Assembly: GCA_003212925.1 (NCBI GenBank)
Contig: QCOL01000001.1
Coordinates: 1-64,000 of the forward strand
Length of the DNA: 64,000 bases
Reading direction: 5' to 3'
Origin: Pelagibacteraceae bacterium AG-430-P08
Lineage (GTDB): Bacteria > Pseudomonadota > Alphaproteobacteria > Pelagibacterales > Pelagibacteraceae
Positions within the stretch are counted from its first letter, which is position 1, and each line of letters starts with the position of its first letter. The notes under the pieces were generated by a model. That model made no database searches, was not told the DNA's origin, and worked only from the letters and a program-made list of their open reading frames with translations. Shown here one piece after another: positions 22,281 through 38,577 of the stretch. The position numbers were made by a program, and so were the translations under genes.

Positions 22281-22314
22281 AGATTTGGCGACTATCATGT
22301 ATAGTCGCCAATCT
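22281..22314 (+). promoter_or_regulatory. Strong RNA hairpin between SBP and permease genes
   Basis: AGATT(T)GGCGACTAT - CATGT - ATAGTCGCCAATCT: 14-bp stem with one bulged T, ending 2 nt before ATG at 22317. Confidence 0.85.
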
Positions 22315-33521: not shown

Positions 33522-33616
33522 ATAATTACGTATATCATGAGTTTTTGTCGACTTGACTCTTATTAATAAGTTCACTTTAATTCAATTATTAAAAATAACA
33601 ATAGAGGGAAAAAATA

Positions 33617-34627
33617 ATGTTTAAAAAGATATCTTTATATTTAACTTCATTAGTTTTTGTTTTTACTACTATTGGTTCTGCTTATGCGGTTACGCTGAAA
33701 GCTAGTCACCAATGGCCTGGTACACCAAGAGCTGATGGATCTTATGATCCACGTCATGAAATGGTTCAAATCATTGCTGACGAGGTTAAAAAAGCAAATG
33801 TTGGAGTAGATATTAGAATTTACCCAGCTAAATCATTATACAAACCAAAAGAACAGTGGAAACCAATGACTACTGGTCAATTAGATATTTCTGCTTTTCC
33901 ATTAGCATATGCTTCTAAATTCCATCCAGAATTTGATGCAACTTTAATGCCTGGAACAGTGAAAAATCATGACCACGCATTAAGATTTAATAAAGGTCCA
34001 ATGATGACTGAAATTAAAAAGATTATTAATGATGCAGGTGTTGTAGTTTTATCTGATGCTTGGTTAGGTGGTGGTTTTGCTTCAAAAACAAAATGTATCA
34101 AAAATCCTAGCGATGCTAAAGGTCAAGTTATGAGAGCTGCAGGAAAAGCATTTAACCAAATGTTAGAGGCAGCAGGAGCTGGTATACAAAGTATGCCTTC
34201 ATCTGAAATTTACACAGGTTTACAAACTGGTGTATTAACAGGTGCTAACACAAGTTCAGGAAGTTTTGTAAGTTACAAAATTTATGAACAAGTTTCATGT
34301 GCTACTCCTCCAGGAAAATTTGGTCTATGGTTTATGTATGAGCCAATTTTGATGTCGAAAAAGTCTTTTGATGCTCTAAATTCTAAGCAACAAAAAGCTT
34401 TAATGAAGGCAGGAAAAGTTGCTGAGAAATACATGACAGCTCAAGTAGAAAACTTAGATAAAAAGTTTGAAGATGCTTATAAAGCTGCAGGTGTAAAATT
34501 AGTATACATGGACGCAAAAGACCATGCTGCATGGGTAGAGATTGCGAAAAAATCTTCTCATAAAGCATTTGCTGATAAAGTTCCAGGTGGCGATAAGCTG
34601 ATGGAAATGGCTTTAGCAGTTAAATAA
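33617..34627 (+). CDS. dctP: TRAP transporter substrate-binding protein (DctP family)
   Basis: Signal peptide; LKASHQWPGTPRADGSYDPRHEMVQIIADEVKK, VDIRIYPAKSLYKPKEQW. Confidence 0.92.
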   Translation: MFKKISLYLTSLVFVFTTIGSAYAVTLKASHQWPGTPRADGSYDPRHEMVQIIADEVKKANVGVDIRIYPAKSLYKPKEQWKPMTTGQLDISAFPLAYASKFHPEFDATLMPGTVKNHDHALRFNKGPMMTEIKKIINDAGVVVLSDAWLGGGFASKTKCIKNPSDAKGQVMRAAGKAFNQMLEAAGAGIQSMPSSEIYTGLQTGVLTGANTSSGSFVSYKIYEQVSCATPPGKFGLWFMYEPILMSKKSFDALNSKQQKALMKAGKVAEKYMTAQVENLDKKFEDAYKAAGVKLVYMDAKDHAAWVEIAKKSSHKAFADKVPGGDKLMEMALAVK

Positions 34628-34641
34628 AATAATATATAAAG

Positions 34642-34678
34642 AACCCCTATTTATTCATATTAAATAGGGGTTTTTTTT
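34642..34678 (+). terminator. Intrinsic terminator-like hairpin between dctP and dctQ
   Basis: AACCCCTATTTA (34642-34653) - TTCATAT - TAAATAGGGGTT (34661-34672) with T8 tract ending at 34678; perfect 12-bp stem. Confidence 0.93.
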
Positions 34679-35173
34679 ATGAAAAAAAAGTATCTTCAAT
34701 TTTGTGATCTAATAGCTAAAGCATGTGGTGCCTTCGCTGTGTTAGCATTACTCTTATCAATCTTAGTAATTGTTGAACTTGTTTTTGAAAGATATTTTTT
34801 TCAAAGAGCAATCACATGGCAAACAGAACTTGTCACAATGTTGTTAGTTGCTTCAACTTTTATAGGAAGTGTGTACGTTCTAAGTGAGAAAGCTCATGTG
34901 AGCATGGAATGGATTTACGATTTTTTATCAAAAAAAAATGTAATTAAATTAAAAATTTTTACATCTTCTATTAGTTTGTTATTTTTCCTAATTTTATTTT
35001 ATTTTGGATTCTTAATGTTCGAAGAAGCATTTACCAAAAATTATTCAACAGGAACTGTCTGGGATCCACCACTTTGGATACCATATTCATCAATGATGTT
35101 GGGTGCTTTATTAATGATATTACAGTATATCGCAGAAATTATAAAATTAACTGATGAAGAGGATTTTAAATAA
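34679..35173 (+). CDS. dctQ: TRAP transporter small permease (DctQ family)
   Basis: Four TM segments, AITWQTELVTMLLVASTFIGSVYVLSEKAHVSMEWIYDFL; between dctP and dctM. Confidence 0.92.
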   Translation: MKKKYLQFCDLIAKACGAFAVLALLLSILVIVELVFERYFFQRAITWQTELVTMLLVASTFIGSVYVLSEKAHVSMEWIYDFLSKKNVIKLKIFTSSISLLFFLILFYFGFLMFEEAFTKNYSTGTVWDPPLWIPYSSMMLGALLMILQYIAEIIKLTDEEDFK

Positions 35174-36505
35174 ATGGATCCATTAATTATAGCATTAATT
35201 GTTGCGGTTTTTACTTTATTGGTACTTTTTTCTGGAATTCCAATTGCATTTGGTTTGAGTTTTGTTTCGATAGCTCTTTTGGTTACATTTGAAGGCTTTC
35301 AAATGCTCGACGTCTTTGCTGAAACATTTTTTGCAGGATTAAACTCTTTTGTTTTACTTTCTATACCAATGTTTATTCTTATGGGAATGGCTGTTGCTAA
35401 TTCTCCTGCTGGAAAAGATTTGTATACTGGATTAGATAGATGGCTTTGGAGAGTGCCAGGTGGATTGGTGATTTCAAATATTGGAGCTTGTTCAATTTTT
35501 GCAGCTTTAAGTGGATCTAGTCCTGCAACTTGTGCTGCAATTGGAACAATGGGAATACCTGAAATGAGAAAAAGAGGTTATTCTGATCAAATCGCAACAG
35601 GAACCATTGCGGCTGGTGGAACCTTAGGAGTTTTAATTCCTCCTAGTATTGTTTTGATAGTCTACGGAATCGCAACAGGTACATCAATTGGAAGATTATT
35701 TTTATGTGGTCTTATACCAGGTTTTATGTTGGCAGGTATGTTTGCAATATGGGCTTTAATTCATAGTTATTTTATTGATAAAGATGCAGCAAAAGCTTTA
35801 AGAAATAGAGTAAGACCAACTCTAAAAGAAAAACTTGAAGTTTTACCAAGAATTCTTCCTTTCTTAGCGATTATAGCAGGAGTTCTGTATGTACTTTATG
35901 GAGGAGTTGCAACACCATCAGAGGCATCTGGAGTGGGGGCATTTTTAGTGTTTGTTTTAATTGCTGTTGTTTATAAAATTTATCAGCCGAAAAAGATCTG
36001 GAACATTGTTAAAGTTTCTATGAAGGAAAGTGTAATGATAATGTTTATTATTGCTGCTTCATATCTTTTTGCATTCACTCTTTCACAATTGTATGTAACT
36101 CAGTCATTAGCACAGAGCATGGTCGAATTGAGCTCTAATAAATGGGTTGTGTTCATTCTAATAAACATATTTCTTTTAATAGCTGGTTTCTTTTTACCGC
36201 CAGTTGCAGTTATTGTAATGACTTCAGCTATATTATTGCCAGTTATTACTACTTTAGGTTTTGACCCATACTGGTTTGCAATAGTGTTTACAATCAATAT
36301 GGAGATTGGCTTAATTACACCACCAGTTGGATTAAATCTTTATATTATAAAAGGAATTACCCCAGACGTTAGTTTGTCAGAAATTTTAAAAGGATCTATA
36401 CCGTTTATGATAATTATGGCTTTAGCTATAGTAATTTTATGTATTTTTCCTGAGATTGTTACATGGTTACCTGATAAAATAATGGGTAAAGACCTTGGAT
36501 TCTAA
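35174..36505 (+). CDS. dctM: TRAP transporter large permease (DctM family)
   Basis: IPMFILMGMAVANSPAGKDLYTGLDRW, GTIAAGGTLGVLIPPSIVLIVYGIATGTSIGRLF, TPSEASGVGAF. Confidence 0.95.
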   Translation: MDPLIIALIVAVFTLLVLFSGIPIAFGLSFVSIALLVTFEGFQMLDVFAETFFAGLNSFVLLSIPMFILMGMAVANSPAGKDLYTGLDRWLWRVPGGLVISNIGACSIFAALSGSSPATCAAIGTMGIPEMRKRGYSDQIATGTIAAGGTLGVLIPPSIVLIVYGIATGTSIGRLFLCGLIPGFMLAGMFAIWALIHSYFIDKDAAKALRNRVRPTLKEKLEVLPRILPFLAIIAGVLYVLYGGVATPSEASGVGAFLVFVLIAVVYKIYQPKKIWNIVKVSMKESVMIMFIIAASYLFAFTLSQLYVTQSLAQSMVELSSNKWVVFILINIFLLIAGFFLPPVAVIVMTSAILLPVITTLGFDPYWFAIVFTINMEIGLITPPVGLNLYIIKGITPDVSLSEILKGSIPFMIIMALAIVILCIFPEIVTWLPDKIMGKDLGF

Positions 36506-38337: not shown

Positions 38338-38538
38338 TTAACCAGTTCCCCATTTAACCTTGTTCCAGATTCTCTCATGAAAATAGTAAAAAAAAAGTGG
38401 AACTATAGATCCAACACCGAGTATTCCTGCACCAGTGAATGTTCCAGTGTATATGTATCCAAAAATTACCCAATAAACAAAAATGATAAATCTCCAAGAA
38501 AAAGTTTTAGCTATTGATCTAATTTTTTTATCTGCCAT
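38338..38538 (-). CDS. DUF2061 family small membrane protein
   Basis: RSIAKTFSWRFIIFVYWVIFGYIYTGTFTGAGILGVGSIVPLFFYYFHERIWNKVKWG. Confidence 0.88.
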   Translation of the reverse strand: MADKKIRSIAKTFSWRFIIFVYWVIFGYIYTGTFTGAGILGVGSIVPLFFYYFHERIWNKVKWGTG

Positions 38539-38577
38539 AAAAAAAAAGAGGTGACTTCAGTCTCCCTCCATCACCTC
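38539..38577 (-). terminator. Terminator-like hairpin with T9 directly upstream of the DUF2061 start codon
   Basis: Minus strand GAGGTGA...TCACCTC (7-bp stem, 16-nt loop) followed by T9 then ATG (38538). Confidence 0.75.

What the first reader, a model, noticed from the sequence alone, without database searches (positions are those of the whole stretch)
34642..34681. Perfect intrinsic terminator whose T-tract touches the dctQ start codon inside a TRAP operon
AACCCCTATTTA-TTCATAT-TAAATAGGGGTT-T8-ATG. The dctQM genes have no other obvious promoter gap, so partial read-through would set an SBP:membrane ratio, and dctQ would have to initiate without a free upstream Shine-Dalgarno. The arrangement parallels the hairpins at 22281 and 38548.
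Basis: partly seen in the sequence, partly recalled or inferred. Interest (0 to 1): 0.6.

Follow-up and report, generated by a model that had tools for sequence, protein, structure and literature searches.

The report
SAR11 terminator fused to start codon
In the ocean bacterium SAR11, a conserved RNA hairpin that looks like a transcription stop signal lies between the gene for a nutrient-binding protein and the genes for its membrane pump, ending exactly at the pump's start codon, and most likely makes the cell produce much more binding protein than pump.

Summary
The hairpin is real. A perfect 12-bp stem (34642-34653 / 34661-34672), a 7-nt loop and a run of 8 T (34671-34678) directly precede the dctQ ATG (34679) in a Pelagibacteraceae dctPQM operon. 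All 110 orthologous junctions examined (69 distinct) and all 80 named records (largely overlapping genomes) keep hairpin plus T-rich tract at the ATG. Stem-to-ATG distance is always 7-9 nt, while loop and spacer vary. Six of 12 stem pairs show compensatory change, so the RNA structure is under selection.
In a complete 1.2-Mb relative only 18 of 880 co-directional junctions carry a strong intrinsic terminator; 10 of the 18 follow a substrate-binding-protein (SBP) gene. E. coli (first 100 kb): 12 of 63 junctions, mixed genes.
Best reading: a constitutive, leaky terminator that makes SBP exceed translocator, a known device (ABC operons of Clostridia), here in TRAP operons, squeezed onto the start codon. 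Termination and read-through are inferred, not measured.
Corrections: a Shine-Dalgarno-like AGGGG exists but is buried in the stem; the 22281 hairpin has no U-tract; 38548 is a minus-strand, probable ncRNA terminator, not a transporter junction.

The parts
33553..33581 (+). probable dctP sigma-70 promoter TTGACT-N17-TTTAAT
   Evidence: hexamers invariant or nearly so in 87 relatives; consensus match, not a mapped start site
33617..34627 (+). dctP, TRAP substrate-binding protein (336 aa), SD-like GAGGG at 33604-33608
   Evidence: Pfam DctP 1.7e-40; NCBIfam TRAP_S1; PDB relative 4mco E=1.9e-57
34633..34641 (+). conserved leader TATATAAAG upstream of the stem; can pair with the U-run and the dctQ AUG, or could be a -10-like element (unresolved)
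   Evidence: major-allele frequency 0.93-1.00 against means of 0.71-0.82 at third codon positions; pairing
34642..34672 (+). terminator hairpin: 12-bp perfect stem, 7-nt loop
   Evidence: covariation
34666..34670 (+). AGGGG, Shine-Dalgarno-like, sequestered in the 3' arm, 8 nt before ATG
   Evidence: anti-SD duplex -6.4 kcal/mol; spacing 7-9 nt in 69/69 distinct junctions
34671..34678 (+). U-tract (T8) ending at the start codon
   Evidence: T-rich tract at the ATG in all relatives examined
34679..35173 (+). dctQ, small TRAP membrane subunit; ATG abuts the U-tract
   Evidence: Pfam DctQ 1e-25
35174..36505 (+). dctM, large TRAP membrane subunit; no gap after dctQ
   Evidence: Pfam DctM 6.6e-94
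22285..22311 (+). related but U-less hairpin between an SBP_bac_3 gene and its permease (ATG 22317)
   Evidence: hairpin at the same place in G298 and G012

Best explanation
The element is a constitutive, leaky intrinsic terminator inside the dctPQM operon. RNA polymerase starting at the dctP promoter transcribes dctP; at the hairpin plus U8 most complexes stop, leaving a monocistronic dctP mRNA with a protective 3' hairpin. A minority read through into dctQM, so binding protein is made in excess over the membrane subunits. In read-through RNA the same hairpin holds the AGGGG and, in its extended form, the AUG of dctQ, which probably lowers dctQ translation further. The T-tract touches the ATG because streamlining has squeezed the junction to about 50 nt, close to the shortest that still holds a full terminator. 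Shown: structure, conservation, covariation, fixed stem-to-ATG spacing, concentration of strong terminators at SBP junctions. Inferred: termination, read-through, protein ratio, translational damping.
For: Anatomy and stability. Hairpin plus T-rich tract at the ATG in 110/110 orthologous junctions (69 distinct; a few with 1-3 extra nt) down to 82% dctP and about 66% dctQ identity and in 80/80 named Pelagibacteraceae records (largely the same genomes, so not independent). Covariation: 6 of 12 pairs with two-sided change, 30 such cells against 7.7 in shuffles, slid controls fail. In G298, 18 of 880 co-directional junctions have strong terminators and 10 of these follow SBP genes. Hairpins with or without U-tract at 12 of 14 SBP junctions against 14 of 211 other gaps of 30 nt or more, Fisher p = 3e-11; repeated in G012, 5 of 6 against 6 of 140, p = 5e-6. 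E. coli control with nearly the same detector: 12 of 63. No alternative fold that would make it a switch. Precedent: hairpins after SBP genes act as leaky terminators in Clostridia, U-rich type over 90% efficient (PMC9045158). Need: a model predicts high binding-protein:transporter ratios in SAR11 (PMC8168909).
Against: No RNA or protein measurement was available. A T8 tract predicts strong termination, so dctQM supply might rely on something else. Several SAR11 SBP junctions carry equally stable hairpins without a U-tract, many 5-8 nt from the ATG, so termination cannot be the only function of such hairpins. The leader TATATAAAG is conserved beyond what termination needs. Orthologues within one genus are related, and conservation counts are not independent events.
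Confidence: 0.7

Rival explanations
1. Decay barrier: the hairpin mainly blocks 3'-to-5' exonucleases after cleavage in dctQM, stabilising dctP mRNA as in malE-malF, with little true termination.
For: U-less hairpins at the same place in other SAR11 SBP junctions, including window 22285-22311 and many DctP paralogues. Known for malEFG and four other ABC systems in E. coli (PMC5927463). A terminator hairpin would also give this protection.
Against: Here an uninterrupted U-tract of 6-9 is kept in the orthologues of the main clade, and a T-rich tract in the divergent clade; a decay barrier does not need it.
Confidence: 0.13
2. Full terminator plus separate dctQM promoter: transcription ends at the hairpin and dctQM are driven from a promoter whose -10 is the conserved TATATAAAG, possibly starting inside the stem and freeing the AGGGG.
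For: TATATAAAG at 0.93-1.00 conservation, largely retained in relatives where its pairing with the U-run is disturbed (L046, L091); raised third-position conservation in the last dctP codons.
Against: No -35 match at 16-18 nt (direct reading); promoter-like hits in the region no more than in shuffles; the leader is not kept in the divergent clade L093-L107, where hairpin, T-rich tract and ATG are.
Confidence: 0.12
3. Purely translational device: the hairpin sets dctQ translation by hiding AGGGG and AUG; the U-run is only a spacer.
For: Stem-to-ATG spacing 7-9 nt in all 69 distinct junctions; mean pairing probability of the AUG 0.69; anti-SD energy -6.4.
Against: SAR11 makes little use of Shine-Dalgarno sequences. 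Most other SBP terminators in G298 stand 8-124 nt from the next ATG. The U-run is exactly what a terminator needs.
Confidence: 0.05

Closest known systems
Internal intrinsic terminators downstream of SBP genes in ABC importer operons of cellulolytic Clostridia (Wu et al. 2022, PMC9045158)
   Same: Stem-loop plus U-tract right after the SBP gene, before the translocator genes; no antiterminator; matches their Type I (U-rich).
   Different: TRAP rather than ABC system; SAR11; U-tract fused to the start codon with a Shine-Dalgarno-like sequence inside the stem; leakiness demonstrated there, only inferred here.
Intercistronic malE-malF stem-loop and other differential-decay hairpins in E. coli (PMC5927463)
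   Same: Stable hairpin at SBP/channel boundary giving SBP excess.
   Different: Works by mRNA decay and needs no U-tract; closest to the U-less SAR11 hairpins such as window 22285-22311.
Structured RNAs described in Ca. Pelagibacter ubique (Meyer et al. 2009, PMC2704228)
   Same: Conserved RNA hairpins in SAR11 intergenic regions, one with a poly-U track of 6-9 in about half of examples, read as possible terminator or regulator.
   Different: A term search of the main text found no mention of TRAP, and no SBP-junction hairpin appeared in the passages shown; no Rfam family matches this hairpin at gathering score.

Membership tests
Intrinsic (Rho-independent) terminator | stable stem-loop with G+C-rich base immediately followed by a U-tract of about 7-8 | tested here: met
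   T-rich tract in relatives
Intrinsic (Rho-independent) terminator | structure maintained by selection | tested here: met
   compensatory changes in 6 of 12 pairs, slid and shuffled controls fail
Intrinsic (Rho-independent) terminator | transcripts end in the U-tract | not testable with these tools
   no RNA 3'-end data
Leaky internal terminator at an SBP-translocator junction | located after the SBP gene and before translocator genes, same strand | tested here: met
   DctP, DctQ and DctM by Pfam; dctQ-dctM gap 0
Leaky internal terminator at an SBP-translocator junction | no separate promoter for the translocator genes | tested here: inconclusive
   no above-chance promoter, but conserved TATATAAAG leader
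Leaky internal terminator at an SBP-translocator junction | partial read-through giving SBP excess | not testable with these tools
   would need Term-seq, RNA-seq or proteomics
Riboswitch / attenuator | conserved alternative (antiterminator) structure or ligand-binding domain | tested here: not met
   no fold competing with the terminator helix is supported in a 94-sequence alignment; no Rfam match at gathering score
REP-like / U-less decay barrier | hairpin without U-tract | tested here: not met
   U-tract present; this does describe 22285-22311

The most novel reading that the evidence does not exclude
A composite terminator-initiator: one hairpin ends most SBP transcripts and, in those that read through, also hides the AUG and AGGGG of the first membrane subunit, so the pump is attenuated twice by about 50 nt of DNA. 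SAR11 would use much of its scarce intrinsic termination for this fixed, unregulated stoichiometry control at SBP genes.
Probability: 0.33. Interest if true: 0.65.

Novelty: new variant of a known kind. Interest (0 to 1): 0.48.

Why it matters
[quoted passage not shown] A genome-encoded ratio setter at nearly every SBP junction, in a genome that otherwise has few strong intrinsic terminators between co-directional genes, gives a concrete and testable basis for that ratio. It also offers a simple genomic predictor of which SAR11 genes are kept in excess.

Tried and rejected
Riboswitch/attenuator: no supported alternative fold and no Rfam match at gathering score. Chance hairpin: z = -4.85 and covariation exclude it. 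Later dctQ start: no start codon before TM1. SBP-only rule for hairpin-T-ATG: rejected; the touching arrangement is rare (3 gene starts in G298) and one of them follows a probable ncRNA, not an SBP. Shine-Dalgarno as the reason for the fixed spacing: possible but weak, as other hairpins close to an ATG lack one. Class-level comparison of DctP junctions is not informative in GC-rich genomes, where strong hairpins arise by chance. Leads that gave nothing: literature for SAR11 stem-loops at transporter junctions and for a Rhodobacter dctP-dctQ stem-loop.

Full report
OBSERVATION. The sequence is as described at 34642-34681: a perfect 12-bp stem, a 7-nt loop, T to 34678, then the dctQ ATG. One correction: the T run is 8 in total (34671-34678), not TT plus T8. 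The core folds at -17.3 kcal/mol, z = -4.85, with no shuffle as stable. In a longer piece the A-rich leader pairs with the U-run and the AUG itself. The genes are DctP, DctQ and DctM by Pfam. The dctQ ATG is the first start codon after an in-frame stop, and none follows before the first membrane span.

ORTHOLOGUES. Of 300 same-genus genomes, over 130 carry a close dctP orthologue (82-100% identity). 110 junctions were extracted. All keep a hairpin followed by a T-rich tract at the ATG; a few have 1-3 nt between T-tract and ATG. Among 69 distinct sequences the last G of the junction (the base of the stem) stands 7-9 nt from the ATG in every one, while loops vary from 3 to 9 nt and the whole gap from 44 to 53 nt. 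A divergent clade (dctQ about 66% identical) has a changed stem and tail (TACCCCTGC...GCAGGGGTA-TTTTTC-ATG) with the same layout. All 80 named records from the genome collection, annotated Pelagibacteraceae or Ca. Pelagibacter ubique, show T7-9 within 1 nt of the ATG; these overlap with the genomes above and are not an independent sample.

COVARIATION. On 52 distinct junctions, 98.7% of cells pair, 6 of 12 pairs change on both sides, and 30 cells do so against 7.7 in shuffles; slid controls fall to 34-64% paired. Examples: A-U to G-C at column pair 29/47 (9 sequences), U-A to C-G at 30/46 (11), and A-U to U-A at 22/54 (7). The extended pairing with U-run and AUG is kept in most sequences but does not covary, so it is not proven. 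The leader TATATAAAG is conserved at 0.93-1.00, above loop and third codon positions; whether it serves pairing or as a -10-like element is open. No fold competing with the terminator helix is supported by a 94-sequence alignment reaching 150 nt into dctP. Rfam gives no match at gathering score here.

GENOME CENSUS. The complete relative G298 (1.2 Mb, 29% GC) has a median co-directional gap of 2 nt with the simple gene caller used. With a hairpin-plus-U detector (hairpin at or below -14 kcal/mol) 18 of 880 co-directional junctions pass. Upstream genes of 10 of the 18 are SBPs: Peripla_BP_4, NMT1, OpuAC, SBP_bac_6, SBP_bac_3, PBP_like_2 (PstS-like), SBP_bac_8 and three DctP (for the dctP of the finding). 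The rest include proteorhodopsin (before a ferredoxin), HU (before amtB), an OmpA-family lipoprotein and a cold-shock protein, mostly genes expected to be highly expressed. The downstream gene of the OpuAC case has no Pfam match, so it is an SBP junction but not a proven SBP-permease one. Counting any strong hairpin, 12 of 14 SBP junctions have one, against 14 of 211 other gaps of at least 30 nt (p = 3e-11); a thirteenth is hidden behind a probably spurious 57-aa ORF, and one (712262) truly lacks it. The second genome G012 gives 5 of 6 against 6 of 140 (p = 5e-6; a PstS junction with a terminator was counted as 'other', which makes the test conservative), and further SBP junctions outside the first 800 kb mostly carry hairpins too. 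Nearly the same detector (threshold -12) finds 12 of 63 in the first 100 kb of E. coli MG1655, so strong terminators between co-directional genes are rare in SAR11 and concentrated at SBP genes. In Pelagibacteraceae of five genera 28 of 29 DctP junctions have a hairpin of -14 kcal/mol or stronger, but many lack a U-tract and stand 5-8 nt from the ATG.

CONTACT WITH THE ATG. Only 3 gene starts in G298 have a terminator hairpin whose T-tract touches the ATG: dctQ, the permease after an SBP_bac_6 gene, and the 66-aa ORF of window 38338-38538. The last lies behind a 30-nt hairpin that is nearly identical in 43 of 151 genomes and is followed by different sequence in several of them, so that contact is not a conserved arrangement. 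Contact is therefore best seen as the compact extreme of a common device, kept in this operon. SAR11 makes little use of Shine-Dalgarno sequences (10% of genes at or below -5 kcal/mol against 5% in shuffles); dctQ has a good one by energy (-6.4), but it lies in the stem.

MECHANISM. Best reading: a leaky terminator that sets SBP excess, with likely 3' protection of dctP mRNA and possible damping of dctQ translation. Structure and conservation are shown; termination, leakiness and ratios are inferred. Precedent and need come from PMC9045158, PMC5927463 and PMC8168909. In Ca. P. ubique, transcript increase under iron limitation declines along the sfu operon, 16-fold for the SBP gene, 10.4 for the permease, 5.0 for the ATPase (PMC2864753), which is compatible with polarity but concerns another operon and says nothing about absolute ratios.

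KNOWN OR NEW. The kind is known. New, as far as the papers searched show, are its presence in TRAP operons of SAR11, the fusion of U-tract and start codon with fixed spacing and a covarying stem, and the genome-wide bias of strong terminators to SBP genes. The library lacks most subscription papers, so earlier reports may exist.

Noticed in passing
window 38536-38577 (-), continuing upstream to about 38622: A 30-nt hairpin GAGGTGATGGAGGGAGACTGAAGTCACCTC plus T9 after pgm is identical or 1 mismatch off, loop included, in 43 of 151 same-genus genomes, with a second conserved block upstream; no Rfam match at gathering score. Probably a conserved non-coding RNA with its own terminator.
   Followed up: partly
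window 22285-22311: Strong hairpin without a U-tract between an SBP_bac_3 gene and its permease; a hairpin at the same place is kept in G298 and G012, with a different stem sequence in G012, within a few nt of the ATG.
   Followed up: partly
window 33553-33581: Almost invariant TTGACT-N17-TTTAAT upstream of dctP, a likely sigma-70 promoter usable as a SAR11 promoter reference.
   Followed up: no
L132:10165-10248 (G298): Strong terminator between proteorhodopsin and a ferredoxin gene, also in G012: another highly expressed gene cut off from its neighbour.
   Followed up: no
L316-L319, L321-L324 (DctP paralogue junctions): U-less hairpin CAGGCCCTC...GAGGGCCTG placed 7-8 nt before the dctQ ATG in several genomes: a decay barrier or translational damper rather than a terminator.
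   Followed up: partly
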